Shown here: positions 3,782 to 36,452 of the stretch, piece after piece
Layout of the letters: each line of letters begins with the position of its first letter
Numbering within the stretch: position 1 is the stretch's first letter
Source of the DNA: Brevinematales bacterium
Lineage (GTDB): Bacteria; Spirochaetota; Brevinematia; Brevinematales; GWF1-51-8
Assembly: GCA_013177895.1 (NCBI GenBank)
Contig: JABLXV010000002.1
Location: 65,285 to 104,412 of the forward strand
Length of the DNA stretch: 39,128 bases
Direction of reading: 5' to 3'
Translations under genes and position numbers: made by a program
The notes under the pieces: generated by a model
What the model was told of the DNA's origin: nothing
Database searches by the model: none
Seen by the model: the letters and a program-made list of their open reading frames with translations, nothing else

Positions 3782-3810
3782 CGGACTTCCCCCCAAATCA
3801 AATTTTATTA

Positions 3811-11859: not shown

Positions 11860-11892
11860 AAAAAAAGCCCCATCTCTCGCGAGACGGAGCTT
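11860..11892 (-). terminator. Rho-independent terminator of the giant-protein operon
   Basis: On the minus strand a 12-bp stem (11892-11881 with 11876-11865, two or three G-U pairs) closes on a GCGA tetraloop and is followed by a T-run of about seven. It lies 30 bp past the stop of the PorV-like gene. Confidence 0.93.
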
Positions 11893-11922
11893 TACAGATA
11901 TTAAAAGGAGGGGAATCTGTTA

Positions 11923-13197
11923 TTACTTGGTTTTGTCCTTCTTCTTGTTCTTGTCGACTACAGGAGGTTTCTTGTTATCAGCAGGATTAGTCTTATTAGC
12001 ATCCGGCTGGACTACGGGAGTCGTATTTGCGTTATTGACGGCATTATCGGGCTGCGCAACCACGTTCGTGCTTGCCTTCGAGAGTTCGTCAAGTTCCTGA
12101 TCGGCTTCCATGCCCTTCTCGTAGACAAACGCGCTATTGGGGAGAATGTACGAGTAAGTCAGACCCGCGACATGCTTCATCGACCCGTTGTTAAACCCGT
12201 ACTCGAACGCATAATCGATATTGATCTGGTGCGCCTTCCCGAAGATATACATAAATCCGATACCGGCCGTACCGGTTATCACATCTTCGCTCACCTTCAA
12301 CTGTTCCCAGATCGCGCCCAGACGAATGGAAAGTATCTCACCTTTGAACGGTTTAGATTCAAATATCTCATGCGCCGATAACTGCTTGAACTCAAAACCG
12401 ATATTATACGAGGTGTTTGCCGAACGGTTATCGCTGGCATCCTTTCCATAGGTTACCAAACCGATCCCTATCATCGCGTTTTTCATAAAGAGGATATTTC
12501 CGATATTCCAGTTGGCTCCCAAACGGAATTCTGACGCTAACGTATCGGTGCCGTCGGGCTGAATCGAGATGTTCGGGGCTATCAGGTTTTTATAGCTTAA
12601 TCCCAGACGGATAGTTTCACTGAAGTCATAGGTTAAACCCACGTCGAGACCGAACGATACCTTCGACATCATTCCTCCGAGCGCGGGGTTCAGAACCACA
12701 TCCTGATGCGCGCCGACCGCGATATCGTATATATTCAAACGGATACCGATGGAGATTTTCGCTCCGCGCGAGATCACATCGTTCAAATCTTTCGCATAAA
12801 TAAAGCTGTACACACCCTCATGGTAAATTTCCATAGTCCCGTCGGATACCGACAGGCGATGGAACGCGAACCCGAGCGCGGCGCGTTTCGTAATGAACGG
12901 GTCGAAGCTCAACGAGAACCCGTTAAAGAACGGCAGAACAATGTTCACATCGATAGAATTGAGCGAAGAGCCGTCGTTAAACTGGGAATACGGGGTATTC
13001 CATCCGCTGTATATCTGAAAACTTTTTGCAAGCGCGATAGATGCGGGATTATAATGCATCGAGTTCACACCGTCGAATTCCCCGAACATCGCGTTACCGA
13101 GAGACATACTTCTCGCGGTATAGCCCAAGTCCTCGAACGCCGCGTAAAGAGAACCGCTCACCATCAGTATTGTAATAACCGTCAATAACTTTTTCAT
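11923..13197 (-). CDS. UPF0164/PorV-like outer-membrane barrel protein
   Basis: A 424-residue exported protein with signal peptide MKKLLTVITILMVSGSLYA. After cleavage comes the family-typical start: ARSMSLGNAMFGEFDGVNSM and HYNPASIALAK, as in PorV/PorQ and UPF0164 (FadL-like) proteins. About 12-14 amphipathic strands follow to about residue 370, consistent with a beta-barrel. The last 55 residues are a Pro/Asn/Lys-rich tail (NTTPVVQPDANKTNPADNKK), probably disordered and periplasmic or surface-exposed. In Bacteroidota, PorV shuttles type IX secretion cargo; spirochaetal UPF0164 proteins have no firm function. It is the last gene of the operon with the two giants, 28 bp after the second. AAGGAGGAATAAG precedes the ATG. 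Confidence 0.85.
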   Translation of the reverse strand: MKKLLTVITILMVSGSLYAAFEDLGYTARSMSLGNAMFGEFDGVNSMHYNPASIALAKSFQIYSGWNTPYSQFNDGSSLNSIDVNIVLPFFNGFSLSFDPFITKRAALGFAFHRLSVSDGTMEIYHEGVYSFIYAKDLNDVISRGAKISIGIRLNIYDIAVGAHQDVVLNPALGGMMSKVSFGLDVGLTYDFSETIRLGLSYKNLIAPNISIQPDGTDTLASEFRLGANWNIGNILFMKNAMIGIGLVTYGKDASDNRSANTSYNIGFEFKQLSAHEIFESKPFKGEILSIRLGAIWEQLKVSEDVITGTAGIGFMYIFGKAHQINIDYAFEYGFNNGSMKHVAGLTYSYILPNSAFVYEKGMEADQELDELSKASTNVVAQPDNAVNNANTTPVVQPDANKTNPADNKKPPVVDKNKKKDKTK

Positions 13198-13225
13198 CTT
13201 ATTCCTCCTTTTCCAAGTATATCTA

Positions 13226-16200
13226 CTAACGCGCCAGTACTATCGTTCCGCTGTACGTATTACCGTCAGCGATCACGCGATAGACAAACACACCGCTTTT
13301 AACCGGATATCCCTCGTCATCGGTCCCATCCCAGAATACTTCAGCCTGGGTATATCCGCCGCCTTCGAATGTAAAACTTCGTACCAGTTCGCCGCTGAGG
13401 GTATATATCTTGATCTCATATTTTGCGACCTCTTTCGCGAACCCTACGGAAAGTTTCATATTCTTAAAGCCCTTGTCCGTACTGAACGGAGTAAATATCT
13501 TGGGATCCACCGTTACATTGACAAATCCCGGAGCTATTTCTTTTATAGAATTTTCCCCGAATATCGCATAGTACTGGTGGATATAGCTTACCTGCGCCGT
13601 AACCGAGTTCTCGAGCGTATTCACTTTACCCCCGATCCTCATCCATTCGCCGGTCATCTCACGCCAGTAATAGATCGCAAGAGAGTTTTCACTCCATCCC
13701 TGCGCGGCGATATTGGTTTCGTTGTAGTACAGTTTCAGGGTTAAATTCCCCCAAATTTCCTGCGCGGTTACATCATAGCCGTTGATATCGCTCATATCGA
13801 GATAGAAGACTTCCAGATTATTCCTGTCCGCGGGGGTCTGGATATATCCTCCGCCGACTTCCGCCATCTGCTGTGAGTTAATATTAGAAATCCACATATC
13901 CACGGCGAAATAGTTCCTGATAATTCCCGGCGGGACAATCAGTACGCTATTCAGGTCGTCCAGACAAAGGGACTGCTGAACTACGGTAGAATTAGGATTA
14001 AAGGAATCCTTTTTCATCTTATAGTTCACCCCGTTGGTAATCTGGTTGATCACAACGTTAATATTCGATAATACCGAAGATTTATAAAGATCGCCGCTGA
14101 AGTTTATCTGATAGGCTCCAGGCGGGACATAGTCGAGCACATAGTATCCGTTGGCGCTATTCGCCGCGGCGGTGATCAATTCCCCGAATTTATTCGTCAT
14201 AATCGCGTTCGTCGAACCGGGCATCAATAGCTTCACGGTCGGGTTAGCCGATCCGGGCAGGACATACCCGATGATACGCCCGAAGTCCGCGAGCAGAACG
14301 GGTGTATAATTCCATTCGCCCGTATATACCTTCGTGCTCGCCCATTCGAGGTTCCCGTCATACTGCACCTGCGCCGCCATATTGTTCGTCCAACTCGTGT
14401 TGTTCGTATAGACCACATAGAAATGCAGCGTCGTTTCGCCCTTAGAAATATCCTGTCTCGACGGGAGCAAGCCCACCGCCGCGAAGTTGATGAGCACATT
14501 CGACGGGGTAGTCGTATACGGCAGGAACGCATGATGATAATCGGAGTAGATATTGGTGATCATCAGGTTAGTAGTATTGAATTCAATACGTATCTTCTGT
14601 ATCCCGATATCATACATTCCGTTCTTGACCTTGTATACTATCTCGTTGTAATGATCGATGCTGTAAAGGATCTTCTTATTGTATACATAAGCCTCGGTCG
14701 GTTCCTGCGGCGATTTAAAGTAAAGATTCACGTTCATCAAAGTCGAACCGTAGGAACTGGTATTATAAGAATATACCTTCATTAGCAGATTCTTCGCCGT
14801 GAATACACTGTTCGTGAACTGGAACGTAATCAGGTTAGTCTCCCCGGGGAAGAACCCGTTCGCGCCGCTGTAAGTAATAATCAGCTTGCTTCCAATATTC
14901 GTAGCGGACGCCCCGGAATGACCCGTGTTAATAGAAGATACGATATGATTCCCGATTTCGTTCGGCAGGATAATCACATTGGAATACACAAGGTTTTCGT
15001 TGGCATTCCTGTTGCTCAGGATGAAGATGAAATTATTCGTTTCAATTTTCAGGCTCGTATTAATCAGGAACCAGCTGGAAATCTGATAATTCGTGATATC
15101 CGCTAACGGTATCTTCATATACTGCTTGAGTCCGTTGTTCGGCTCGCGCACAAACCCGTATCCCGACCCGTTATTCGCTTTGACAGTATAGGACAACGGG
15201 TACATTTCCACCATATTCGTAGTATCCCATATAGTCATAGTCACCGTGTCCTGCTGGCCTTTCGGGAGGAAGTTAGCGCTGTTCGTATAAGCTACTATAA
15301 TATACGATGCGGTCTGCTGTGCGATCACACCCTTCGAACTGGAAGGCGCGGTGATATTATTAAATATCGCCGGTATATCGATACGAACGTATTTTACCGG
15401 TTCGGTACCGCTGGTGTTATTATCGATCGTGAAAGATATGGTGTTATTCAGTCTTGTCGAGTAAACTGTTTTCGACGCCGCTGTCAGTTCCGCGGACGGC
15501 GCTTTGACGACATTGAGGTACTTCGAGTCGGTATTAGTGGTAGTATATGCCCCAAGTACGCCGTTCGACGCGACCGACTGGAAGAGGTAACTCGCCAGAT
15601 TGGTCGAGAAGTTCGTTACGCTCAACGTCAGGGTATTGGTCAGCCCGACGGCGAAGTCTGAATAGAACAGAACGAATTTTCCGGCGCTATAGGTAATATT
15701 AGTCGTCATCCCGTTGACATCGGTCAGCTTGAGATCATCCATCTGGTTGGTAAACTGATCCGGTATATAAAGCACGATCTTCTGAGCTTTATTGCTCCCC
15801 GTCGCCTTATTGATTAAGCGGAAGGTAATCGTACCGCTGTTCTGACTGCTGTAGAAGTCGTTGGGACTCATTTCAGCGGCTACGGACGGAGCGGGCATCT
15901 GGAAGCTCACCAGGTTCGTACCCACGCTGACGGATGACGAAATATACTGCCCGGCGGACGTGTTATACATCACATTCGCGGTAAAATACGCGGACGAGTT
16001 ACCGAAGTCGATATTATCCCGGATTTTCAGCGTAATCACATCGTTGGATGACGGTGGTATCGGCGTCGGATAATTAACGAGTATATAATTGGAACCGACT
16101 ACAGGAGCGCTACCCTTAATAGTAGTAGCAATCAGCCCGGCATTGGTAAACGGCGACGCGAAAAATACCTTGACGCTTGTGATATTATTCGTTCCCGTAC

Positions 16201-19200
16201 CGGTGTTGTTCACATAGATACTGATCGTATTGGAGACTTCGGCTGTAGAAACCGTATTCGGGTATGCATAATAGGAAGAATTGTAAGCAGGAATAATGAC
16301 TCTAAATTCAAGGCTCTTCCCGATATTTGCAGGATTCTTTGAAGCAGTAATGGGGGGATTGTTTTTTAAATTTATCCCATATACTTTCCAATTGCCAATG
16401 AATCCTTCATTGTTCTGATTGTCAAACGCTGTAAACTGAATAGTATCTTTGCCCATTGATGGAATAAAATTATTACCATAGTTGATGTAAATACATCCAT
16501 CATTGGAATACCATGTTGTTGCAGCTATTGTAGTTGATATTCCGGTAACATTTGTAATAACAAGTTTATTATTTGCATTAGTAGTTGGAGGAACAATTTT
16601 AAATACATACATGTTATTACTTAATTCACCTGTATTTGTTACAATGAATGAAAAACTAGTGGAAATATTGTCTTTACCTACTGTATTGGGATTTACATAG
16701 GCATAAAAAGAAGCATTAGGCGCTTTTATTTGCTGTACGCTTGTTCCTTTTACTTGACATGGAATAGCCGTAGTATTATTTGTATAATATACTTCCGCTT
16801 TCCAATCTACATTTGTCGGATTTGCTAAGAGCGGTTTGACAGCTTTTATAGAAAGATGAGTTGTCATATTCTGGTTAAGCAGTCCTGAACCGGGATACGT
16901 GAGCCAGATATAACCGCCGCTGACTGTTACATCAGCCGAAGTCAGGGTTACGGAAATATCACTCGGATTTACGGTATAAAGACTCGGAATTTTTATCCGA
17001 ACTTTATTGACCGAAAGACTCCCGTTCGTACCGTTCTTTATATCGTAGGTAAACGTATTGGTTCGAACAGTAGTTAATGTGTCTCCCAATAACGTCACCT
17101 TGACACGTTCCGTACCGTACACCCATGCGCTTCCGATTACCAGGTTGGTCAGCTCGTAGTAGGTTTTCCCGGGATTCCCGATATCGTAGAACCCGTTATC
17201 GGCGAAAAATTCCCATTTCCCGTTGGTGGGCAATAATGTCATATTGGATATCATCGCGGTGACAATCAGGGTATCCGATTTCCCCGCTGTAATTTCCTTC
17301 GCCGCAGGGATATAATTCACCTGTATATTCGTCGATGTAATGGTGAAATACGCCGAATTGGTTGAGGAAAGATTGAGTCTCGTACTGTACACCGATTTCA
17401 CAAAGCCCTTCAACGGTTTCGGCATCTTGACCATGATTTTCTCGAATATATCCTGCCCTATTCCGGTGTTTGTTACAATAAGCGTAAACTGCTGGGTGAT
17501 AATACTGCCCGCCGGTTCGGACTTCTGCACGAATACCACGTTCGGCGAACCGCCGCCGCCGCCGCTCGGTTTGGGAATTTCAAAATCAATCTTTCCGCTC
17601 TTCCCGGAAAGGATATCCGGGTTCCCGAGCGTATCGTACTCTAAATCGTTCCTTACCGACGGATAGAAATACGCCTGTTTATCTTCCTGTCCGACTATAT
17701 CCACCATCTTGAAGGTGACTACGCATGCCTGTCCGCCGTCTAACGGGGGACTCAGCGTAATCTTAATCCGATGCAGAGACATCTCAGGCACCGCCGTACC
17801 TACGCTGGGATTGATAAGCAAGACGTTGGTGGAGATATCCGCGGGAATAGGTATATAGAAGTAATGGATTCTGTTTCCCGGCAGCCCTGTATTCGACAGC
17901 ACAAACGTTATATCGTTAGTTACCGACGATGACGCGATGATCTGAGGAGAGACCGAGAATTTAGCGGATACGGGAGGGAGTTTAAAATAAAGCTTGTTTG
18001 TTCCTCCGTAATTCGGATCGAATTCGGCAAGGTCATACCAATCAACGTCATTAGTCTCATATTCCGATTTATACACATAGACCGGTATGGTTACGTTTGT
18101 CGGCATCCGGTTTGTGGAGAAAGTCGCATAGTTTACGCTATCGATAAATTTAACAATCACGTTCTCTTTATCGTTATTCACATATTTCGAGAACAAGCCT
18201 CCATTCGTATCGTTAAAGAATTTCAGATAGATGAAGTTTGTCCCGTTAAAATTCGTCTGAATAATATTAGCGGGGTTTTTCATGTAGGTAGTATTCACGC
18301 TCAGTATGGTCGGGAACTTATCCGCCGAGAACATTAGCATTGCATACTTTATGCTGACGCCGCGAGGCGAGGTATTATAGATCGTATTGGTGATCGTATT
18401 GGTGATCGCAGTCGTGTATATCCACGCCGGATTAATAAAGTTCGCCGCCGAGGGTGTGGGAGGTTTGATAGTCACACTCCACGATTTACCGAATTCCTGC
18501 GACTGCATGACGTACCCTGAAAGGTTTCCGTTATCCGCATATAGTATGAACGGCGCAAGTACAGCCGGGGAGTTTACGTTCGTATTGGTGTGCGTCATGG
18601 TGAACTGTATCGTATCCACATCATTTGTTTTCAGCGGGGTTCCGTAGTTGATATAAATCATCCGCTCGCTATTCGTATAGGATACCGACGCGCCTTTCGC
18701 GCTGGGAGTGGTAACCGAAATACCGGTATAGTTCACAGGAACCGATATCTTCGCTTTGATAATCGAATTATCGCCCTTTCCCTGATTCTTTATCGAATAG
18801 GTATAGCTGTTCTGGTTGCTTGCCACAATCGCGAAGATCGCGACTTTATCGGGGCTGATCGACCCCACCGCGATGGCATTCGACTTCGCAACCGTTACCT
18901 GCATGAGCGATGTATTGGTAGCGTTCTGCCATGTCGTTCCGGTTACATAAAAGCTGCTGTTAACAGCGACCTGCCAGAGGAAATTAGACGAACTTTGCGC
19001 CCCTATCGAGGGAGTCCCGTAAGCATTAAACGAGATACGGTCGAAACCGTCTTCCCCGGGGAATCCGCCGATCAGGCTATTCGTATAATAAACATAGATA
19101 TATCCGCCCGATACGAACGCGTTGTTCGTACTGAGGTCGCCTGACGAAGTTTTCAGTACCATCGACTGAATATTCAAAAGACCCGCGCTGTTATTACTGA

Positions 19201-20941
19201 CAGTGAAGCCCGACGGTATCTGGATACGGATATGCGAAATATCCGGCGCTCCGGTAACCAGTTCGGACGATATTTTCACCGTAAACACGGACTGCTCGGT
19301 CCCTACTATAATAGGCGACGGAGAATATTCGACCTTCGCGTAATTCAGCTTAGGTTGGGTATAAGTCCTTACCAGGAGACCCTCGGTTCCGTTAGCATAC
19401 GCTTTTTTCTTACCTGTGGTGGCGTATTTCATTACTCCGCCGAACGCGAAATCCGTCCCGGTCCTCGCGTGTTTCGTACAATCGGCAAAAACTTCGAAGT
19501 TCTGGCCTAATCTGTCCCCGGTCGCGGGAGTAGTGATAGAGAACCCGATTTTTATCGTGCCGTTTGTTACGACATTATTAGCCCCGTCCGTCCCGAGCAT
19601 CCCGAAGCGGATATACAATAGTCCGCCCCTGTCCTCGACATAGAAATTATTCGCGGGGAGTCCGCCGATTCTATACGATGCCCCGGTCTGCGGTGTCATT
19701 ACCACACCGGCGGTGTTAGTCACCCATACATTTGCGGGTATCCACGCGCCGTAACCCGTGGGCTTCTTGATATATATTTCGCCGATACCGCTGTCGTTGG
19801 TCGAACCCATCTGCGGTGTCAGGCTGACCGTAAACGGCACAAGCGCGCCCGTCACCGCTTTCTGCGGGGTTATCGACGCTACCAGATTACTGGCTACCGT
19901 ACGGATATAGAAATTATCAAACGCTGTACATACTTCCCCTTCACGGAAGAAGGGGGATTCAATCCCGAAGAAACCCACCAGATCGTCATACCACCCTACG
20001 CTAGCTGAACCGACAAGAACCCATGTGTTTGATACATTTGCGGTATCTCCTATCGGATCGGGATTGATATACATTTTTACCGTTTCCCCGTCATGGGTGA
20101 TTTTTATCCCTAGTTCAGTAGTGATGGGGTTGGTATAACCGTCGCCGTCCGCGAATTGTGTCGCAAGACAGTTCTGATTATTCAGGTTATTATCGTCAAA
20201 ATTCTTCCTGAAATTTCCCGTCAGGTTTCCGGGAGTGACACTATCCACATCTCCCGTTAATGCAGCAATCGCTACATCGTGCTCGTAATCCTTATAGTAT
20301 CCCCATGTGTTATTCGCTATTCCATAATTTGCCTTATCGTAGAAGTAGACATAGTTTTCCCATGTGTCATACGGATCGTGCGCACCGTTATCCTGGGCAA
20401 TCCAAGCAGTTACCAATCCTTTTTGCGCCGCACTATTCGCATATCCGCCGGCTTCCCCGGAGTCGCCGCGTGCGTCTATGCTGGTGGTATAACGGATGAT
20501 GACATACCCGAACGGTTCTTCCAGTGAGGCATTTATCGTAGGACTTCCGAGAGCGGCACAATTTTTCGGATCCCATTTCGCGCCGTCGCCCAGATACCAG
20601 TTGTTCCATGATAACGCTGAATTGTTCGGCTTACCATAGATATTCAGCATATTTCCGCTGACGTTGACCGTACCGGGGTGATTTCTATCCCATGCAGACA
20701 CTCCATCCAAGGGAGAATCCTGAAAGAGATCAAACACGATCATATCGCGGCTCATACGGAAGTTAAAATCCCATCCGTTAGCGATTGCGGTTGGAGAGCT
20801 GGAAAAGTTCTCGAAGTAGTACATCGATTTTCCAAAACCCGTGACCGAAGTCAGGACAACCATCGATATTGCGAGGATTAAGCTATATATTTTGCTCATA
20901 GGGTTTCTCCCGAGTTTGTGCGTATTATTTATGTGTTTCAT
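13226..20941 (-). CDS. Giant secreted repeat protein A with type A-like sorting domain
   Basis: A 2571-residue protein. A signal peptide (hydrophobic core IYSLILAISMVVLTSVTG) is followed by a concanavalin-lectin-like domain (about 40-345) ending in AFDNFYIRTV. Thirteen beta-sandwich modules of about 143 residues (about 350-2210) follow, each with a V-x-N-T-G turn, an I-x-I-P strand and a D-x-I-x-F strand. Then come a carboxypeptidase-regulatory-like fold (about 2210-2310) and a domain shared with protein B (about 2318-2460). The C-terminus (about 2475-2571) resembles FlgD-Ig or type IX type A sorting domains, with FWDGTDDEGYPVKSGVFVYR and final IVLAR. Asn and Thr are abundant. A glycine run (GGGGG, near residue 1125) follows module 5. 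The ATG at 20941 has AGGAGGG upstream; an in-frame ATG at 20899 has a weaker GGGAG. Role unknown: adhesin or surface layer are options. Confidence 0.85.
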   Translation of the reverse strand: MKHINNTHKLGRNPMSKIYSLILAISMVVLTSVTGFGKSMYYFENFSSSPTAIANGWDFNFRMSRDMIVFDLFQDSPLDGVSAWDRNHPGTVNVSGNMLNIYGKPNNSALSWNNWYLGDGAKWDPKNCAALGSPTINASLEEPFGYVIIRYTTSIDARGDSGEAGGYANSAAQKGLVTAWIAQDNGAHDPYDTWENYVYFYDKANYGIANNTWGYYKDYEHDVAIAALTGDVDSVTPGNLTGNFRKNFDDNNLNNQNCLATQFADGDGYTNPITTELGIKITHDGETVKMYINPDPIGDTANVSNTWVLVGSASVGWYDDLVGFFGIESPFFREGEVCTAFDNFYIRTVASNLVASITPQKAVTGALVPFTVSLTPQMGSTNDSGIGEIYIKKPTGYGAWIPANVWVTNTAGVVMTPQTGASYRIGGLPANNFYVEDRGGLLYIRFGMLGTDGANNVVTNGTIKIGFSITTPATGDRLGQNFEVFADCTKHARTGTDFAFGGVMKYATTGKKKAYANGTEGLLVRTYTQPKLNYAKVEYSPSPIIVGTEQSVFTVKISSELVTGAPDISHIRIQIPSGFTVSNNSAGLLNIQSMVLKTSSGDLSTNNAFVSGGYIYVYYTNSLIGGFPGEDGFDRISFNAYGTPSIGAQSSSNFLWQVAVNSSFYVTGTTWQNATNTSLMQVTVAKSNAIAVGSISPDKVAIFAIVASNQNSYTYSIKNQGKGDNSIIKAKISVPVNYTGISVTTPSAKGASVSYTNSERMIYINYGTPLKTNDVDTIQFTMTHTNTNVNSPAVLAPFILYADNGNLSGYVMQSQEFGKSWSVTIKPPTPSAANFINPAWIYTTAITNTITNTIYNTSPRGVSIKYAMLMFSADKFPTILSVNTTYMKNPANIIQTNFNGTNFIYLKFFNDTNGGLFSKYVNNDKENVIVKFIDSVNYATFSTNRMPTNVTIPVYVYKSEYETNDVDWYDLAEFDPNYGGTNKLYFKLPPVSAKFSVSPQIIASSSVTNDITFVLSNTGLPGNRIHYFYIPIPADISTNVLLINPSVGTAVPEMSLHRIKITLSPPLDGGQACVVTFKMVDIVGQEDKQAYFYPSVRNDLEYDTLGNPDILSGKSGKIDFEIPKPSGGGGGSPNVVFVQKSEPAGSIITQQFTLIVTNTGIGQDIFEKIMVKMPKPLKGFVKSVYSTRLNLSSTNSAYFTITSTNIQVNYIPAAKEITAGKSDTLIVTAMISNMTLLPTNGKWEFFADNGFYDIGNPGKTYYELTNLVIGSAWVYGTERVKVTLLGDTLTTVRTNTFTYDIKNGTNGSLSVNKVRIKIPSLYTVNPSDISVTLTSADVTVSGGYIWLTYPGSGLLNQNMTTHLSIKAVKPLLANPTNVDWKAEVYYTNNTTAIPCQVKGTSVQQIKAPNASFYAYVNPNTVGKDNISTSFSFIVTNTGELSNNMYVFKIVPPTTNANNKLVITNVTGISTTIAATTWYSNDGCIYINYGNNFIPSMGKDTIQFTAFDNQNNEGFIGNWKVYGINLKNNPPITASKNPANIGKSLEFRVIIPAYNSSYYAYPNTVSTAEVSNTISIYVNNTGTGTNNITSVKVFFASPFTNAGLIATTIKGSAPVVGSNYILVNYPTPIPPSSNDVITLKIRDNIDFGNSSAYFTANVMYNTSAGQYISSSVSVGTNLVSFQMPAPSVAAEMSPNDFYSSQNSGTITFRLINKATGSNKAQKIVLYIPDQFTNQMDDLKLTDVNGMTTNITYSAGKFVLFYSDFAVGLTNTLTLSVTNFSTNLASYLFQSVASNGVLGAYTTTNTDSKYLNVVKAPSAELTAASKTVYSTRLNNTISFTIDNNTSGTEPVKYVRIDIPAIFNNITAPSSSKGVIAQQTASYIIVAYTNSANFLPKGQQDTVTMTIWDTTNMVEMYPLSYTVKANNGSGYGFVREPNNGLKQYMKIPLADITNYQISSWFLINTSLKIETNNFIFILSNRNANENLVYSNVIILPNEIGNHIVSSINTGHSGASATNIGSKLIITYSGANGFFPGETNLITFQFTNSVFTAKNLLMKVYSYNTSSYGSTLMNVNLYFKSPQEPTEAYVYNKKILYSIDHYNEIVYKVKNGMYDIGIQKIRIEFNTTNLMITNIYSDYHHAFLPYTTTPSNVLINFAAVGLLPSRQDISKGETTLHFYVVYTNNTSWTNNMAAQVQYDGNLEWASTKVYTGEWNYTPVLLADFGRIIGYVLPGSANPTVKLLMPGSTNAIMTNKFGELITAAANSANGYYVLDYVPPGAYQINFSGDLYKSSVLSNINVVINQITNGVNYKMKKDSFNPNSTVVQQSLCLDDLNSVLIVPPGIIRNYFAVDMWISNINSQQMAEVGGGYIQTPADRNNLEVFYLDMSDINGYDVTAQEIWGNLTLKLYYNETNIAAQGWSENSLAIYYWREMTGEWMRIGGKVNTLENSVTAQVSYIHQYYAIFGENSIKEIAPGFVNVTVDPKIFTPFSTDKGFKNMKLSVGFAKEVAKYEIKIYTLSGELVRSFTFEGGGYTQAEVFWDGTDDEGYPVKSGVFVYRVIADGNTYSGTIVLAR
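16290..16870 (-). other. AT-rich mosaic segment inside giant gene A
   Basis: By hand count, the 60-base rows from 16321 to 16800 (three of them only partly typical) have 25-38% GC. Rows only 400 bases away, such as 15901-15960, reach about 58%. The segment encodes roughly residues 1358-1551, matching one beta-sandwich module (the eighth) and its linkers. The reading frame is intact and the amino-acid pattern is unchanged. Codon choice shifts to A/T-ending codons. This suggests that one module was acquired or exchanged from a source of different composition. Confidence 0.65.
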
Positions 20942-20950
20942 ATAGCCCTC

Positions 20951-23900
20951 CTAACGTACGATCACAAGGGTGCCGGAATAAGTCTGCCCGCCTACAATTA
21001 CCTGGTAAATGTAGACACCGCCCTTAATCGGGTAACCCTCGTCATCTTTGCCGTCCCATGCAACCTCGCCCTGGGTAAACTTCCCTCCGCTGTCCGCGGT
21101 ACGTTTGAAGCTACGCACCAGCATACCGAACAGGTCATATATCTTTACTTCATAACTATCGTACTCTTTATCGAATTCAAACGATATCCTGATAGTCGTA
21201 TAGTAATCGTCAGAACCATAGGGTGTAAATACTTTCGGCCTGAGCACTACGTTCTGGATGATACCCTGCTCGTTCACCAACTTAGCCATAACCGCGTAGA
21301 ACCCGTGCAGATAAGCGACTCTCGCCGTTACTACATTATTTACGCTATCTACCGTACCGCCTATCCTTACCCACTTCGAGTCGGAGTAGTCCGTGTCGCC
21401 GTTATCGTCCCAGTAGAATATTCCCAGATCGGCGACCTGCCATCCCCATCCGAGGTTGGTAACAGGATCGAACGCCAGGTACATAATCGCGTCAAGCTCT
21501 AACAGCGACCCTCCAATAGGATTATCGTCGCTATCGTAGAACTGGAACAGGTAACCGAACATTCCGTCCTTACCCAACGGAGGTTTAATCAGCTTGCTGT
21601 CGTCAATTTTCGCCTTCTGGGGCGGTGTTAACGGCAGTACTTTTATATCCACCGAAAATTCGTTCCCTACGGAACCCGACGGGAAGAAGATACGTGTATT
21701 GGTCTGCATATAGCAGGTTACTTCCTGATCAGGCGCTTCATCGCCCGATTTAAGGGTGGCGTTCCGCATCGTGATAATTGAAATATTCGTGATCTTGTTC
21801 GCGGCAATATTGATAAAGAAGCTTTCCTTCTTGAATATGCCGGGTAACGAGAACTCCATACTATAAGTGCCCGCAGGAATACGGCTGAGTATATATTGCC
21901 CGGTATCTACCGTACTTAACGCGCCCAGATTTATCCCGTTGTCATTCGTAGCAAGAACAGTCGTGTTGGAATAGTACAACTTGACATTAACGGCCTTGAT
22001 ATACGGATAAACCGTGCCCTTAACCGCGCCCCACGCGGAATTGGTAATACCGATATAGCTGAGATTTCCGCCGGTCTGGATACCGATAACATTCGTGTTA
22101 GACCCGCTTTCCAGCACAATCGAGTTGGTCGTATGCACTTGGATATAGAATATATCGTTCAACGCGTAATCGAATGTTATCCGCACGTCGTCGTATTCGG
22201 TGAATTCCATCGACGAGGGAGCTGTAGCGCCATAGGTCAGTATAATCCGGTTATTATTCGTATCGAACAGGATAGTTTGCGCGATACTGTTCGCGGTATC
22301 GATAGTAACATGATTGAATACATCCATCAGATTGGTATCGAACACGATGATCGATTGCGTGAGCACTGACCCGGTCGAACGGTTCATAATACGGAATGTC
22401 AATGTCGCATTGGTTTCGATCAGGTACAGGTTATTCTCGCCGTAGAAATAAGATTCCGCGGCTACAGGAGGATAGTCCACGCTCAGCATCAGGTACTGAC
22501 CGAGATTACCGGAACAGTTGTAATACACCGGGTTATTGGTCAGATTGGCCGCCAAGACTTCTATGCTCAGGTTGGTAATCTGATTGATCGTATTGACAAA
22601 ATCGAAACTGATATCGTCGCTATTTCCGATATCTAAAAGATTGGTGTATCTGAGATAGATAATGTTACTTGTCGCGCTGTAAGTAACCACCCCGCCGTAA
22701 GCGCTATTAATATTGGCAATACTCGCCAGACCGAACGGGAGCTTAATTTTAGCGAAACTGATTCTATCCGACCCGTTACCTATATTGGTAAGGGTGATCG
22801 TCATACTATTGGAAATTTTTCCTAATTCTATATAATCCGGGGTGGACGAGGTTCTCGCATAAACTTCGGGCATAATAAAGAACGCATTAGCCGATTTCCC
22901 CGAACTGATATTCATCGGGTAATATCCCTGGCCGTTATGAGCCCAGACATAGAATGAATTCGTCAGGTTCCCGATCTCATAATCATCCTGCAGAAGTATA
23001 CGTATCGTATCCTGGTCGCCTACCGGGATTGTTTCGCCCATAGCCTGATAATCCAATGTCAGGCTGGTAATCGTCCCATAGTTGCTCACAGGTATATCGT
23101 TGGCTACAACCGAATAGTTTGTAAACTGCGACGGGAACTGGATGACCAGCTTCTGGATATGCAGGGTCGCCGCGTTGACGCTGTTATTGATCGTGAACAC
23201 ATACTCCTGCTCATTCGTCGACGTATCTATCTCATTGGGCGATACGCTGAACGAAGGAACACTCGTCAGGGACAAATCCTTGTTGCCGGAAGTGTAATTC
23301 GTATTGATATAGTTCTTGACGGACGATTCGATAGTGACATCCTGAGACGCGGAGGCCGCGTTAGTAACATAGATAAACAGCTTATCCACTGTTTTCGGCG
23401 CGAAATTCGTATAGGTCAGCGTAATAATACCGCTTGCCGAGGCGTAGGAAATATTCGAGGCAATCGAGTTAGATACCTTCGACGCGCTGAAACCGGTGCG
23501 GAAGATACTCGGGAGCAGTATCTTTACCTCATTCAGGTCGTTGGAACCCTGGCCGGTATTGCTGACATTATAGGAAATAACCAGATCGGGCCGGTTGAGG
23601 TACATTTCGCCCGGCGTCTTGGTCACCGATGCCGACGGCAGCGGCATCTGGAAGTTGATAGCCAGCGATTTACCTGCCATCAGGGTCGCGGGTTTATACT
23701 GGTTATAGGTGGAGTCGAACGCCACATCCGCGCTCCATGTCACGGATGTTTCGGAGTGTGAAATCAAATCCCTGATTTTTATCAGGACTTTATCGCTTTC
23801 TCCGGGGAATATTTTATCGGAGGAATAGTCCAGCCAGATATACCCGTTCGATATAACCGCGGCCGGTATCGTTTTATTGACGCTGGATACGGAAACCCAG

Positions 23901-26900
23901 TTCGTATCGAATACCGTACCTATATCCGGGATTTTTATCTTCGCATAGGTGATACGGTTTCCCGTACCGCTCTGGTTCCAAATTTCAAAATATAGATAAT
24001 TCGTAGTAAACGTGGAATAGACCGTATTCGGGTCGAACTGCGATACGTAATTGTAATTACTTGCGGAAATATAGATATAAGGGCTATAGTCGGGTTTGAC
24101 TATATTAAGAGCGAGACTCTTTCCGCCCATCTCGACCGCGGTCTGCATGAGAGTAATATTGGTATTCGTCGTGTTATCGACATATACCTTCCATGTCTGC
24201 GCAACCTCGGTATTGGTGATATTATCGGCGCCGATAAACTGTACCACATCGGTCTCGGAGGTATTCAAACGCTGAGACGCGTTGGTGTAATACACCAGTA
24301 ACAACCCGTTATGATAGTAGCATACTCCGCCCTTTACCGTGGAGGAAATCGAGCTGATATTGGTAATCGCGGCGGGAATCTCCACCGCCATCATCAGGAT
24401 ATTATTATCCGTTTCCCCGCTGTTCTTAATATTGATCTTATAGGTATTCGTAGGGAAATCCTGCGAAACGGAATTGGGTTCGCTGAATGCCAAACCGCTT
24501 GCTATCGGGTTACTGAAAGTAACATCCTTCGAGTAGCCCCCGGTTTTAGTTTTAGTAGGATGCCAACCCGTACCGTCGTTATAGTTGACATAGATTTCCG
24601 AAGCCACATTGTTAGGCCCGCTTTCCCAGTTATCGTAGGCGGTGAAATTAATCGATACCGCGTTATTCGGCGCTATACCCGACGCGTACCCTACCTCGAC
24701 GATCGCCGAGTTATTCGAGTAATAAGTATTATAGGTATCGCCGCCGGAACAGTTCGATATCTTGGTAAACGGCGTAAGCATGACAATCTTAACGCCATAG
24801 ACGTTTTTACCGGTAACATAGTCGCCGTTCTTCAGGAAATAAGCAAAGATATTTTTTACGGAAGGCGTCAGTATCTCGTTGGGGGTAAGATACCCATAAG
24901 GAGTATCGACCTGCGCGAGAGTTTTACTCCCCGCGAGCCCGCCGACGGAAAGAGTCCATCCGCCGTTCGTCATATTATGCGATCCGTCCGCGTTCGTCGA
25001 GTTATTCGCCGCAAGCATGTTCCACGTACTGGTAAAGACGTTGGTGGTATTGACTAACAGCCATATATAGGTATTGTCGATCGCGCCCGCGTCCACATAC
25101 TGTCCGCCATCAAGGTCGTAATCGATACGAATGTAATCATTCGAAATATTGATCGCGCCGGGTTTCGAGACGCTTGTCCCGTTTAAGAGCTCGTTACTGA
25201 TCAGCAGGACTTTCCCGATAAACTGCGCGGGTATCTGAATCCAGACACGGTCGAGAAGGTTGCTTCCGACGCCGCGGTTGCTGACGCTGATACACACGAT
25301 GTTAGTCTTAGTCTGCCCCAAATCGGCGCGATAGATCGCGTAAGGGGCTATCGTATACGCGTACCATGTCGGAGGCGGAATAATATCCACCGTCTGAGAT
25401 TTTGTAGGAGTCACTTTAACAAAATTACTCCACATTCGTTGGTTCTGCACGCTTGCCTGTATGTCAAAATGCACCGATCCCGCGGACACGCTATCGTTCA
25501 GGTAGAATGAGATATTATCGCTCAATCCGCCCGCGAATGTGTTCCCGGAATACGTCACGCTCAATTTGTCCCCCGTGTAACTGATGCTTCCGCCGAGGGA
25601 GCTCGACCATGCGCTGACATTCTGAATATAATTAGTGGGTAAATGGATATATACCGTTTGGATAATATTGCTGACCCTTCCCATATTGCGGATAGTGTAT
25701 ACGACATTCGTGCCGCTGGAGGCTGAGTCGATATACCCTAATGGTACTGTAATATAAGCATCCGCCGCAGGTTGAGGATAGATGAAGTTCAGCGTCAACT
25801 GCTGGGGATCCTCGGCGTAAGGCTTGGCCTTGGCGTAATTGGTGGTATTTCGAACCTGCACGAGGAAAGAATAATTATTCGAGGAGTTTACGCTGTCCCA
25901 CGCTTTAAAGCTGACCACACACGATTCGCCGACCAAGTTCGTGGCCGCTTTCAGCAGATTGGTAAACTGCACATGAATGACGTTCGTCCCGCCGTTGGTG
26001 AGATATTTTGTACAAATCGCGTTGGAAATCTTCGTCACGGGATGGAACGCCGCGATACTGAAAATATTCGTTAATTGCGGAGGGCAGAATATCAATGCGT
26101 CGTATACATCATTGCCGAGTTCGCCGCTGTTCTGAATCGTGACCTGAATGTTAGTGGCGGTCAGAATATCGGTAAATATATGATGCGAAACCAAATCGTT
26201 GGTGTATTCTCCGCCCGGCGCGTTGATCTTCGCGATAGCTATAGCGGGAGGAGTATAATAATAGGTCTTGTATGTATCGGCGTGTTCCGCGACACTGATC
26301 CATCCTTCGCCGTTACCGTTATCCGCCCATGACGGGAAATTCGCCATGAGTATCAGGTTTGTCAGCGCTTTAACATTGTCGTGCCCATAGAATGTGATGA
26401 CGTCGCCGCCGCTGCTGAGGATGTTCGTAGCCTGCGCCTGATAATCGATTTTAATATAAGTATTGGTCACGCTCGCTACATTAGATACAAATGTCGTTAT
26501 CGTCGCGGGAAGAGTGCTTGCGATCGAGTTAATACTCGTAATCTTGCTATCTACACGGATAAGAACCTTTAATAAGTTATTACCGGTCAGGCCGTTATTC
26601 GCGACCACATACTTATATAAATTGCTGATGGCGGTATTTTTGATATAGTTCTTCGGCAGCCCTGTAATCGGGTTACCGTTCTGGGCATACGCCTGCGCGT
26701 CAGGCGGCTTCTTTCGGACAACCAACTGCTGGGATGGATATGCGATATTAGTGCCGTTTGTTACAAACGAAACACCCTGTACTGTAGAATAGGAATAAGA
26801 AGGGAAAGCAACCAAAACCATATTCGTACTCGGGGGTACATTGGTGGTAGTCGATGTATTGAACTTGATTGTATCGATACCCGTACCGGCGACAAGTTTA

Positions 26901-28717
26901 ATTCCCTCGGATGTATAATCTACTTTAATGATAGTCCCGTTGGAAATCAGTGATAGCCCGGAACTTCCCGCGAGACGTTCGCTGTCCAGACTTCCCGGGA
27001 CAACAGTAAAACCCGTGGGAACTTTTATCAAAACTGAGTTAATATTCGCATTGTTATTGGTATTCAGGGCTTTGATATCGTAATAGAATGTCCCCGCGGT
27101 TCCTTCGTAGATTTGCCCCGGCCGGAGATAAGCAAGCCCGAGAGGAGAATTCACAGTCATAAATTTCAGTCCGTCGCCGTTCAGTTGGAACGATTTCATC
27201 TTACCGGTAGTAGCGTTTTTCGCCCATGTGGTATCCGCGTATTTTTCGTTATTCGCGTAAACCGTGAATGTTTTTCCCACAGAATCCGCTTGTGCAGGAG
27301 TGCTGAAATTTGATATCACCAGCATGATTGTGGGATTTTTGGTATCGATACCCAAGCCGCTGAGGATAGTCGGATGGAAGACGCGGCAGTCCGCGCTCGT
27401 GCTCCCGACCGCGTCGAAACGTATCCGTAAGAGGTTGTTGCTGACTATCGAGATAGAAGCGCCGTTCAAAACAGAGGGGTTAACATTTCCTACCTGTTTG
27501 GTAAAAGTCTGATAGACTCCGCCGTTAGTCGCCCAGAATATTTGCAGCTTATTCGTATAATCCGCCCAGTTGGTATAAACAGACCCGGCGGGAAGTTGGA
27601 CATATAATTCCTGAACACCGGCATAGTCCGTGGAGGCATACCCGGTAGCGGCGAAATTTGGGGTAACAATTATCTTTAACGGGATTGAGGATCCAGCCGC
27701 CGCGGTCGCGGGGGAGATATACGACGTAATGGATGAACAGACCGAACGAATTCTGAAATCATCAAAATACGCTCTTTCCGCTTCAGAATCCGGACGGTTA
27801 TTTCCCACTCCGAACATCGGAATAATCTGGTTGGTAAACGAGATAGGAAGTTTCGCTACCAGATAGTAGGTATTCGTATAGGTCGCGGCAACCCCATTAT
27901 ATTTATTCCACGCACTGGTAGGCGCTCCATTGGGAGCGGGGTTGACATAAAAATAGGCGTATTCCCCGTCAGTAGTTAAACGGAAACGGATATCCGCGTT
28001 ATTAATATTATTCGCATTAGCTGTGCCTCCATAGGTAGCTTTTCCCCAACTGTCGTCATAACCCCATTCCATAAGGTCGACGAGATTAACTCCGCCCTTC
28101 AGTCCCACGGGATCTAAGGCATTTGTAAAATCAAACTTAATGTCCTTTGTCCCGGATTCGTTAGGAGTCCAGAACGAACGTGGAAGAACATTAGGCTCGG
28201 AGGGAAGCCCATCGTTCGTACCCAGTTGCGGACGGCTGAACTCGATGATAGTCAGGAAATCGTCGAAATGTACTCCATCGGTCATCTGATTCTTTACCAG
28301 CCAGAGAATTAAATCACATTTCATACGCCCTGATTCAGGGTTGGACGCATCGTCATGAGGATCAAGCCATGCATAGGTACGGGTGATCTCAAAACCGAAG
28401 GGTTTTTCCTTCGATGCGGTATACCCGGCATTCGGCCCGAGGTTGGTCAGCTTCGCTTGGAAGCCGTATAGTTCATTTGCATATCCGGCAGTGTATCCGT
28501 TACCGGTAAAACGAAGCTCGCCGCTTGCTCCGCTATTTATTGTTACAGTTTCACCATCGCCCACTAGTCCGTATCCCAGCGAACGGCTATACTCATACTT
28601 TAATTGCCAATTAGGCGTGGATGATCCGAACAGGTCTTCAAAGAAATAAGCGTACATCCCGTTATAAAAAATGGAGAGAAATAGCGTAAAAACCACCAGC
28701 CCCTTGAACACCTTCAT
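20951..28717 (-). CDS. Giant secreted repeat protein B with type A-like sorting domain
   Basis: A 2588-residue paralogue of protein A, first gene of the operon. The signal peptide is MKVFKGLVVFTLFLSIFYNG, with a likely cut after MYA. The N-terminal lectin-like domain (about 25-325) ends in YFDDFRIRSV. I count 13 Asn/Thr-rich beta-sandwich modules (about 330-2230), a short regulatory-like fold with GAVKGTVYPYIKAVNVKL (about 2235-2310), and a shared domain with GSVGNEFSVDIKV and VTARVAYLHGFYAVM. The C-terminal domain (about 2487-2588) has YEVKIYDLFGMLVRSF, VAWDGKDDEGYPIKGGVYIY and final LVIVR. The modules resemble DUF11 or Ig-like stalks of surface proteins. AAGGAGGAG precedes the ATG. Its TAG stop lies inside the ribosome site of gene A, nine bases before that start, so the two are tightly coupled. 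Function unknown. Confidence 0.87.
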   Translation of the reverse strand: MKVFKGLVVFTLFLSIFYNGMYAYFFEDLFGSSTPNWQLKYEYSRSLGYGLVGDGETVTINSGASGELRFTGNGYTAGYANELYGFQAKLTNLGPNAGYTASKEKPFGFEITRTYAWLDPHDDASNPESGRMKCDLILWLVKNQMTDGVHFDDFLTIIEFSRPQLGTNDGLPSEPNVLPRSFWTPNESGTKDIKFDFTNALDPVGLKGGVNLVDLMEWGYDDSWGKATYGGTANANNINNADIRFRLTTDGEYAYFYVNPAPNGAPTSAWNKYNGVAATYTNTYYLVAKLPISFTNQIIPMFGVGNNRPDSEAERAYFDDFRIRSVCSSITSYISPATAAAGSSIPLKIIVTPNFAATGYASTDYAGVQELYVQLPAGSVYTNWADYTNKLQIFWATNGGVYQTFTKQVGNVNPSVLNGASISIVSNNLLRIRFDAVGSTSADCRVFHPTILSGLGIDTKNPTIMLVISNFSTPAQADSVGKTFTVYANNEKYADTTWAKNATTGKMKSFQLNGDGLKFMTVNSPLGLAYLRPGQIYEGTAGTFYYDIKALNTNNNANINSVLIKVPTGFTVVPGSLDSERLAGSSGLSLISNGTIIKVDYTSEGIKLVAGTGIDTIKFNTSTTTNVPPSTNMVLVAFPSYSYSTVQGVSFVTNGTNIAYPSQQLVVRKKPPDAQAYAQNGNPITGLPKNYIKNTAISNLYKYVVANNGLTGNNLLKVLIRVDSKITSINSIASTLPATITTFVSNVASVTNTYIKIDYQAQATNILSSGGDVITFYGHDNVKALTNLILMANFPSWADNGNGEGWISVAEHADTYKTYYYTPPAIAIAKINAPGGEYTNDLVSHHIFTDILTATNIQVTIQNSGELGNDVYDALIFCPPQLTNIFSIAAFHPVTKISNAICTKYLTNGGTNVIHVQFTNLLKAATNLVGESCVVSFKAWDSVNSSNNYSFLVQVRNTTNYAKAKPYAEDPQQLTLNFIYPQPAADAYITVPLGYIDSASSGTNVVYTIRNMGRVSNIIQTVYIHLPTNYIQNVSAWSSSLGGSISYTGDKLSVTYSGNTFAGGLSDNISFYLNDSVSAGSVHFDIQASVQNQRMWSNFVKVTPTKSQTVDIIPPPTWYAYTIAPYAIYRADLGQTKTNIVCISVSNRGVGSNLLDRVWIQIPAQFIGKVLLISNELLNGTSVSKPGAINISNDYIRIDYDLDGGQYVDAGAIDNTYIWLLVNTTNVFTSTWNMLAANNSTNADGSHNMTNGGWTLSVGGLAGSKTLAQVDTPYGYLTPNEILTPSVKNIFAYFLKNGDYVTGKNVYGVKIVMLTPFTKISNCSGGDTYNTYYSNNSAIVEVGYASGIAPNNAVSINFTAYDNWESGPNNVASEIYVNYNDGTGWHPTKTKTGGYSKDVTFSNPIASGLAFSEPNSVSQDFPTNTYKINIKNSGETDNNILMMAVEIPAAITNISSISSTVKGGVCYYHNGLLLVYYTNASQRLNTSETDVVQFIGADNITNTEVAQTWKVYVDNTTNTNITLMQTAVEMGGKSLALNIVKPDYSPYIYISASNYNYVSQFDPNTVYSTFTTNYLYFEIWNQSGTGNRITYAKIKIPDIGTVFDTNWVSVSSVNKTIPAAVISNGYIWLDYSSDKIFPGESDKVLIKIRDLISHSETSVTWSADVAFDSTYNQYKPATLMAGKSLAINFQMPLPSASVTKTPGEMYLNRPDLVISYNVSNTGQGSNDLNEVKILLPSIFRTGFSASKVSNSIASNISYASASGIITLTYTNFAPKTVDKLFIYVTNAASASQDVTIESSVKNYINTNYTSGNKDLSLTSVPSFSVSPNEIDTSTNEQEYVFTINNSVNAATLHIQKLVIQFPSQFTNYSVVANDIPVSNYGTITSLTLDYQAMGETIPVGDQDTIRILLQDDYEIGNLTNSFYVWAHNGQGYYPMNISSGKSANAFFIMPEVYARTSSTPDYIELGKISNSMTITLTNIGNGSDRISFAKIKLPFGLASIANINSAYGGVVTYSATSNIIYLRYTNLLDIGNSDDISFDFVNTINQITNLSIEVLAANLTNNPVYYNCSGNLGQYLMLSVDYPPVAAESYFYGENNLYLIETNATLTFRIMNRSTGSVLTQSIIVFDTNLMDVFNHVTIDTANSIAQTILFDTNNNRIILTYGATAPSSMEFTEYDDVRITFDYALNDIFYIQVHTTNSIVLESGSNTNVIGIQTGGNLSYIGITNSAWGAVKGTVYPYIKAVNVKLYYSNTTVLATNDNGINLGALSTVDTGQYILSRIPAGTYSMEFSLPGIFKKESFFINIAANKITNISIITMRNATLKSGDEAPDQEVTCYMQTNTRIFFPSGSVGNEFSVDIKVLPLTPPQKAKIDDSKLIKPPLGKDGMFGYLFQFYDSDDNPIGGSLLELDAIMYLAFDPVTNLGWGWQVADLGIFYWDDNGDTDYSDSKWVRIGGTVDSVNNVVTARVAYLHGFYAVMAKLVNEQGIIQNVVLRPKVFTPYGSDDYYTTIRISFEFDKEYDSYEVKIYDLFGMLVRSFKRTADSGGKFTQGEVAWDGKDDEGYPIKGGVYIYQVIVGGQTYSGTLVIVR

Positions 28718-28776
28718 ATCTCCTCCTTTTATAAATACCCGAAAATTTATATACTCCGTATTAAGCTAAGGCTTCC

Positions 28777-28866
28777 TGAAAAGTCCTTCAAAATTTCCTG
28801 ACCTTCGTTTCTTAGGGATGATCCAACCCCGGATTGATAAGAATACGCCATCCGAAGGACTTTTCA
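28777..28866 (-). promoter_or_regulatory. Structured leader of the giant-protein operon
   Basis: A perfect 13-bp inverted repeat, TGAAAAGTCCTTC (28777-28789) and GAAGGACTTTTCA (28854-28866), encloses 64 bases that include a small ATCC/GGAT hairpin (28821-28834). It lies 60-150 bases before the giant B start, inside the predicted long leader. No T-run follows, so it is not a plain terminator. No known riboswitch core was recognised. Confidence 0.6.
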
Positions 28867-29006
28867 AGATAAACCTGTGCTCCGGAATTACTCCCGGCAA
28901 CATCCCCTGATATACCATTATTATCTAGCAATTATCATGCCTAAATAATATTCCTGTAATTGTATATATAACCAATATATATAACGCTCTTCCTCATGGA
29001 TTGACT

Positions 29007-29044
29007 TGTGTAACTAATACACAACTGTGTAATAATTATACACA
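29007..29044 (-). promoter_or_regulatory. Double palindromic operator with embedded -10 box
   Basis: Two palindromes with identical arms stand in tandem: TGTGTA-N5-TACACA (29007-29023) and TGTGTA-N7-TACACA (29026-29044). Their centres are 20 bp apart, about two helical turns. On the minus strand the second contains a perfect TATAAT (29040-29035), with a weak ATTCCA at -35 distance (29063-29058, 17-bp spacer). Transcription would start near 29028, between the palindromes, and run into the giant genes with a leader of about 310 nt. The regulator is unknown; the symmetry fits a dimeric helix-turn-helix protein. Confidence 0.65.
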
Positions 29045-29129
29045 TGCCCGAAGAGGCTGGAATAATTAGAATCCATTCATTTCATCGGAATTTCAGTATC
29101 GAAAGTAAAATATATGATGAGATATTGAA

Positions 29130-35216: not shown

Positions 35217-35228
35217 TTTTGCCTCCTC

Positions 35229-36443: not shown

Positions 36444-36452
36444 TTTTCCTCC

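What the first reader, a model, noticed from the sequence alone, without database searches (positions are those of the whole stretch)
11860..28717. Possible type IX-like surface display operon: two giant cargo-like proteins plus a PorV-like barrel
Two adjacent paralogues of about 2.6 kDa x 1000 residues each end in a domain like the type A sorting signal of type IX secretion (DGxDDEGYP, then GVYxYxV, then a short basic end). The third gene of the same operon encodes a UPF0164/PorV-like barrel. In Bacteroidota and some related phyla PorV carries such cargo. I know of no described type IX system in spirochaetes. Seen directly: operon structure, C-terminal similarity and barrel signature. Inferred: the secretion route.
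Basis: partly seen in the sequence, partly recalled or inferred. Interest (0 to 1): 0.78.

Follow-up and report, generated by a model that had tools for sequence, protein, structure and literature searches.

The report
Type-IX-like protein export in spirochaetes
A spirochaete genome carries giant surface proteins, a partner outer-membrane barrel and, elsewhere, the giant pore SprA that defines the type IX secretion system, without the system's usual sortase and motor as far as I could detect, so this export route is not confined to the Bacteroidota and their relatives.

Summary
The operon is real: two paralogous secreted repeat proteins (2588 and 2571 aa) ending in an Ig-like C-terminal domain (CTD), then a 424-aa 14-strand barrel, then a terminator. 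The organism is a Brevinematales spirochaete. A full-length SprA homologue (1989 aa) is present; profiles built from such proteins hit only F. johnsoniae SprA in the PDB (E 3e-40). PorU, GldL and GldM were not found. In class Brevinematia all 14 SprA-positive genomes have the CTD and all 4 SprA-negative genomes lack it. Across 296 genomes of the phylum, SprA and CTD co-occur strongly (94 both, 6 CTD only). The CTD profile-matches T9SS type A sorting domain TIGR04183 (several above cut-off) and also FlgD_ig. The window genome has five operons in which CTD cargo is followed directly by a barrel; two of these barrels pass NCBI's PorV-family cut-off. The arrangement resembles the cognate cargo-SprF pairs of Bacteroidota type B substrates. 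Best reading: a T9SS-like export system (SprA plus cargo-dedicated PorV-type carriers that probably also anchor the cargo), without detectable sortase or motor. Secretion itself is inferred. I found no published description.

The parts
20951..28717 (-). Giant cargo-like protein 1 (P0001, 2588 aa): signal peptide, unique N-terminal domain, 12 detected Ig-like repeats, CarboxypepD-like domain, CTD
22124..27109 (-). 12 Ig-like repeats of about 100 aa spaced about 135 aa (P0001 residues 537-2198)
   Evidence: iterative HMM
20954..21250 (-). C-terminal sorting-type domain (CTD) of P0001
   Evidence: FlgD_ig 1.9e-6; TIGR04183 22.9 bits against cut-off 23, PorU CTD 5.8e-8; A3 profile 4.6e-42
13226..20941 (-). 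Giant cargo-like protein 2 (P0002, 2571 aa): paralogue of the first, 11 detected repeats
14762..19312 (-). 11 Ig-like repeats (P0002 residues 544-2060)
13229..13516 (-). CTD of P0002
   Evidence: FlgD_ig 3.9e-5; TIGR04183 19.7 bits; A3 profile 1.7e-45
11923..13197 (-). PorV-type outer-membrane barrel (P0003, 424 aa), proposed dedicated carrier/anchor of the two giants; 14 predicted strands, lysine-rich C-terminal tail
11864..11893 (-). Intrinsic terminator closing the three-gene operon
   Evidence: 13-bp stem, T run; (4 such sites found in that region, 1.8 expected)
28718..29129 (-). Upstream intergenic region of 412 bp after ispG, with ribosome-binding site aaaggagg; promoter location not determined
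   Evidence: sequence; promoter-like scan not decisive

Best explanation
The operon encodes two giant surface adhesin-like proteins and the outer-membrane barrel that takes them out of the cell and probably holds them. Proposed sequence: (1) both giants and the barrel cross the inner membrane by signal peptides (seen in sequence). (2) The C-terminal Ig-like domain is the export signal (inferred from match to type A sorting domains, strict C-terminal position and co-occurrence with SprA). (3) It is recognised inside the SprA pore encoded elsewhere in the genome (SprA homology shown; binding inferred). (4) The operon's own PorV-type barrel docks at SprA's side opening, binds the CTD and leaves with the cargo, as PorV does for type A and SprF for type B substrates (inferred from homology and from the cargo-then-barrel operon rule). 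(5) No PorU was detected, so the CTD probably stays on and plugs the cargo to the barrel as a lasting surface anchor (inference). (6) Energy comes from an unidentified source, as GldL and GldM were not detected.
For: SprA: the window genome has a 1989-aa ORF hitting TIGR04189 at 1.4e-14; a profile of 21 such proteins hits only SprA in the PDB, E=3.4e-40 over two long stretches. Present in all 14 Brevinematia genomes outside family f4, including a one-contig 99% complete genome; the eight full-length ones put in a tree form one clade that follows the taxonomy. CTD: 10 of 11 class-wide CTDs match TIGR04183 at E<=0.1, best 1.3e-10; C17, C28 and f5 members exceed the curated cut-off; PF18962 cut-off exceeded for one; the CTD profile also hits the PorU CTD in the PDB at 1.1e-8. 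Co-occurrence: in the class 14/14 SprA+ genomes have CTD-profile hits and 0/4 SprA- genomes do; in the phylum 94 both, 6 CTD only, 41 SprA only, 155 neither; in family f22 all 28 SprA+ genomes have a CTD hit below 1e-6, against one of the 14 listed SprA- genomes. Barrels: profile A4 hits PorV in the PDB at 6e-5 and no other below 0.1; C17 and C28 barrels pass the PorV_fam cut-off, 99.8 and 103.7 against 90. Pairing: in the window genome C2, C8, C14, C17 and C28 each have CTD gene(s) then barrel on one strand; the C14 and C28 barrels were not in the profile that found them.
Against: No PorU (PF01364 in 5 of 296 genomes, none in the class), GldM 0/296, GldL none over cut-off in the class; the two motor searches had no positive control. 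The CTD also matches FlgD_ig, and similar Ig domains occur inside OmpA proteins of the same genome, so the fold alone is not a signal. The AlphaFold model of P0003 is only moderate (pLDDT 62) and matches FadL and OmpG at least as well as PorV. In family f2 the giants lack a barrel next door, though one is encoded elsewhere. 41 SprA+ genomes lack a CTD hit at 1e-6. No biochemical evidence.
Confidence: 0.72

Rival explanations
1. A complete canonical T9SS: sortase and GldKLMN motor are present but too diverged for the family profiles used here.
For: The SprA homologue itself scores well below its family cut-off (52 against 200 bits), so other parts could be missed; the GldM and GldL searches had no positive control.
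Against: The Peptidase_C25 search rang in five other genomes of the phylum and not once in this class. The SprA surroundings hold no recognisable shared T9SS genes.
Confidence: 0.13
2. The CTD is an ordinary FlgD-like Ig domain without sorting function, and the barrel is a FadL-type nutrient transporter; their neighbourhood is incidental.
For: FlgD_ig is the best Pfam hit of the window proteins; FadL-family structures are among the top fold matches of P0003.
Against: Strict C-terminal position in six proteins of the genome, repeated cargo-then-barrel pairing, TIGR04183 matches over cut-off in own-genome paralogues and relatives, and co-presence with SprA.
Confidence: 0.08
3. The SprA-like pore exports something else, and the giants reach the surface by another route (for example BAM- or autotransporter-like).
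For: 41 SprA+ genomes have no CTD hit at 1e-6, so SprA may have other clients or CTDs that the profile misses.
Against: CTD hits rarely occur without SprA (6 genomes at 1e-6, 2 at 1e-7). The giants' only predicted barrel is the separate P0003.
Confidence: 0.07

Closest known systems
Type IX secretion system of Bacteroidota (SprA/Sov, PorV, type A CTD cargo)
   Same: SprA homologue, PorV-family barrels, CTD matching TIGR04183/PF18962, signal peptides on cargo
   Different: No PorU, GldM or GldL detected; several cargo-linked barrels instead of one PorV; phylum Spirochaetota, where TXSScan found none (PMC4793230 reports T9SS only in Bacteroidetes) and reviews confine it to Bacteroidetes or the FCB superphylum (PMC7463736, PMC11205867)
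SprB-SprF and other type B CTD cargo / PorP-SprF carrier pairs of F. johnsoniae (PMC12618676, PMC9143113)
   Same: Giant repetitive adhesin-like cargo with the gene of a dedicated outer-membrane barrel directly downstream; the barrel is proposed to act as carrier and anchor
   Different: CTDs fit type A (TIGR04183) better than type B (TIGR04131, under cut-off); barrels fit the PorV family better than PorP/SprF
UPF0164/FadL-like outer-membrane proteins of spirochaetes
   Same: PorV-type N-terminal motif and barrel; the C17 barrel weakly hits UPF0164 (0.009)
   Different: The window barrel itself has no UPF0164 hit and sits in a cargo operon
FlgD hook-cap proteins
   Same: Ig-like fold and WDG motif of the C-terminal domain
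   Different: Secreted 2500-aa repeat proteins, a subtilase and others, not hook-cap scaffolds; barrel partner

Membership tests
Type IX secretion system | SprA/Sov outer-membrane translocon | tested here: met
   1989-aa ORF at G000:C15; TIGR04189 1.4e-14 (below curated cut-off); reverse profile to PDB SprA 3.4e-40; 14/14 non-f4 Brevinematia
Type IX secretion system | Cargo with signal peptide and C-terminal T9SS sorting domain | tested here: met
   TIGR04183 over cut-off for own-genome C17 and C28 cargo and f5 giants; window CTDs 22.9 and 19.7 bits against 23. Signal peptides read from sequence, not predicted by a program
Type IX secretion system | PorV-family carrier barrel | tested here: met
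   Own-genome C17 and C28 barrels over the PorV_fam cut-off; P0003 below it but its profile hits PDB PorV 6e-5
Type IX secretion system | PorU C25 sortase | tested here: not met
   PF01364 in none of the 18 Brevinematia, 5 of 296 in the phylum
Type IX secretion system | GldL/GldM proton-driven motor | tested here: inconclusive
   GldM 0/296, GldL none over cut-off in the class, but no positive control rang
Type IX secretion system | GldK/PorK-GldN/PorN ring, SprE/PorW, Plug, PorZ | not tested
Type IX secretion system | Demonstrated CTD-dependent, SprA-dependent secretion | not testable with these tools
   needs an experiment
Type B cargo / PorP-SprF pair | CTD passes TIGR04131 and barrel passes TIGR03519 | tested here: not met
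   TIGR04131 21.5 bits against 35; TIGR03519 24.2 against 90.55
Type B cargo / PorP-SprF pair | Barrel gene directly downstream of the cargo gene | tested here: met
   Five such operons in the window genome
FlgD hook-cap protein | FlgD full-length family match | tested here: not met
   FlgD equivalog models hit only the Ig part, at 18.6 against a cut-off of 230 bits

The most novel reading that the evidence does not exclude
Spirochaetota widely use a pared-down type IX export system, SprA plus cargo-specific PorV-type barrels, that works without the GldLM motor and without a sortase. Cargo is pulled out and left plugged into its own barrel as a surface anchor. This may be an ancestral or parallel form of the Bacteroidota T9SS.
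Probability: 0.42. Interest if true: 0.86.

Novelty: new variant of a known kind. Interest (0 to 1): 0.76.

Why it matters
The T9SS has been described as specific to Bacteroidota or the FCB superphylum. An SprA-based system in 135 of 296 sampled genomes of the spirochaete phylum would change its known range and age, give a new way to predict spirochaete surface proteins (any protein with this CTD), and raise a testable question: can SprA export work without the proton-driven GldLM motor and without PorU? The repeated cargo-then-barrel operons also make carrier-cargo specificity open to comparative study.

Tried and rejected
Neighbour-gene comparison around SprA in 21 genomes found no shared T9SS genes, only locally shared housekeeping and LysM/M23 genes. 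GldM and GldL searches came back empty and, lacking a positive control, are not proof of absence. The genome-contig scan with the diverse SprA alignment A1 could not run (no conserved stretch) and was repeated with A2. PDB search with P0003 alone gave nothing; the profile was needed. The shorter SprA profile A7 does not reach SprA in the PDB directly; the link goes through A1 (hhalign E=4.5e-74). The OmpA proteins on C19 and C37 carry FlgD_ig repeats internally and were not counted as cargo. The 260-aa proteins before BatA-like genes in family f5 have weak CTD matches and no barrel; left out of the pairing claim. Rfam and tRNA scans of the window were empty.

Full report
WHAT IS THERE. The three genes stand as described, all on the minus strand with gaps of 9 and 28 bp, ending in a strong terminator at 11893-11864. 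Upstream lies ispG (356 aa) and downstream a phosphoglucosamine-mutase-like gene, both named from reading the translations, so the operon is these three genes. P0001 and P0002 are full-length paralogues (26% identity over 2483 columns, E=3e-123), each with a signal peptide visible in the sequence, a unique N-terminal domain, 12 and 11 detected Ig-like repeats of about 100 residues, a CarboxypepD-like domain and the C-terminal domain (CTD). P0003 has a signal peptide and a PorV-like N-terminal motif (ARSMSLGNAMFGEFDGVNSMHYNPA). AlphaFold gives a 14-strand barrel at moderate confidence (pLDDT 62); Foldseek places it in the FadL/PorV group, with FadL, OmpG and PorV all matching. As a profile it hits F. 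johnsoniae PorV at 6e-5 and nothing else in the PDB below 0.1.

WHO. The window lies in a 3.6-Mb, 95%-complete genome of 112 contigs. Named SprA relatives are Brevinematales / Spirochaetes MAGs such as GWF1_51_8 (73% identical) and DeMMO6_14 (85%).

THE REFUTATION TEST. SprA is present: a 1989-aa ORF at C15 hits TIGR04189 at 1.4e-14. It scores far below that family's cut-off, so I tested it the other way round: a profile of 21 full-length spirochaete homologues searched against all PDB sequences returned only SprA (6h3i, 6h3j and related entries), E=3.4e-40, in two long stretches. SprA sits in all 14 Brevinematia genomes outside family f4, including a one-contig genome (G029). The eight full-length Brevinematia proteins placed in a tree form one well-supported clade whose branching follows the families. 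Contamination or recent transfer is therefore unlikely. PorU (PF01364) was not found in any Brevinematia. GldM was not found in 296 genomes nor GldL over cut-off in the class; neither search had a positive control.

THE SORTING DOMAIN. The CTDs of six proteins in this genome (two on C2, one each on C8, C14, C17 and C28) share the WDGxD...GxY/F core, with small variations, and run to the stop, mostly ending in R or K. Scanned as fragments, class-wide CTDs match TIGR04183 (T9SS type A sorting domain) in 10 of 11 cases, best 1.3e-10, with C17 (26.0 bits), C28 (24.4) and f5 members (39.5, 40.5) over the cut-off of 23 and the window's two at 22.9 and 19.7. FlgD models match the same fold, so fold alone is not proof.

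CO-OCCURRENCE. In class Brevinematia, CTD hits occur in 14 of 14 SprA+ genomes and 0 of 4 SprA- genomes. Genome size does not explain it: family f5 genomes of 1.3-1.8 Mb keep both, while the f4 genomes of 1.5-2.0 Mb have neither. One SprA+ genome, G100, has only weak matches, the best of them in a 1352-aa protein with several such domains. In the phylum, using long (A1) and short (A7) SprA profiles that are related to each other (hhalign 4.5e-74), 135 of 296 genomes have SprA. At CTD E<=1e-6 there are 94 genomes with both, 6 with CTD only, 41 with SprA only and 155 with neither (Fisher p=4e-36, not corrected for relatedness). Within family f22, all 28 SprA+ genomes have CTD hits below 1e-6, against one of the 14 listed SprA- genomes. 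In the f22 genomes looked at, the carriers are proteins of about 1600-3700 aa with the CTD at the very end.

CARGO-THEN-BARREL RULE. In this genome: C2 (2 giants, then P0003), C8 (subtilase, then a 298-aa barrel), C14 (484 aa, then 314 aa), C17 (410 aa, then 383 aa), C28 (1351 aa, then 339 aa). The C28 cargo was found only because the barrel profile hit its neighbour. All four barrels found by that profile, apart from an OmpA fusion, lie directly downstream of a CTD gene; two of the four (C2, C17) were in the profile, two (C14, C28) were not. The C17 and C28 barrels pass NCBI's PorV-family cut-off. The C8 barrel has no family match, but its fold search ranks PorV second (model pLDDT 57). Relatives repeat the pattern; family f2 is the exception, its barrel being encoded elsewhere.

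MECHANISM. In F. johnsoniae the substrate CTD binds PorV loops inside SprA and is proposed to leave through the side opening with PorV, driven by the motor (PMC10994853). Type B substrates use a cognate SprF-like carrier, commonly encoded directly downstream, which also sets the final location (PMC12618676). The operon here has the type B layout with type-A-like CTDs and PorV-like carriers. With no PorU detected, the simplest reading is that the CTD is not cleaved and stays in the barrel as anchor. Shown: genes, homologies, pairing, co-occurrence. Inferred: binding, order of steps, anchoring. Unknown: energy source.

NOVELTY. TXSScan found T9SS in Bacteroidetes only (PMC4793230), and reviews confine it to Bacteroidetes (PMC7463736) or the FCB superphylum (PMC11205867). 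My searches of open-licence papers found no report of SprA in spirochaetes; subscription papers and preprints were not searched, and automatic annotation may already label single proteins. I rate it a new variant of a known kind.

Noticed in passing
L022:1-3657 and L023:4048-6729 (G000 C19, C37): Proteins that appear to join an N-terminal barrel, several FlgD_ig domains and an OmpA peptidoglycan-binding domain in one chain; they resemble a carrier fused to its Ig domain and a wall anchor.
   Followed up: partly
L125:1174-5847 (G000 C14): The C14 cargo-barrel operon lies next to two flagellin-like genes on the opposite strand.
   Followed up: no
L190-L198: Family f22 and related genomes carry 1500-3700-aa (or longer) autotransporter-like proteins ending in the same CTD; the f22 ones have a SprA homologue of their own.
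   Followed up: partly
L179-L182: Shorter SprA homologues (about 1570-1740 aa) are followed by a conserved outer-membrane-like protein of about 450 aa; possible partner.
   Followed up: no
L082: A 3.2-kb contig filed under Omnitrophota encodes SprA 46% identical to Brevinematales SprA, possibly misbinned.
   Followed up: no
L126, L127, L128, L131, L133: In family f5 a 260-aa protein with a PNP-type CTD precedes a BatA-like membrane protein gene, without a barrel.
   Followed up: no
window 34014-37673: Three consecutive minus-strand ORFs of about 400 aa; the one translated looks like an FtsX/LolC-type permease.
   Followed up: no
window 2237-3796: 519-aa secreted-looking protein of repeated GPYD-containing units, propeller-like.
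   Followed up: no
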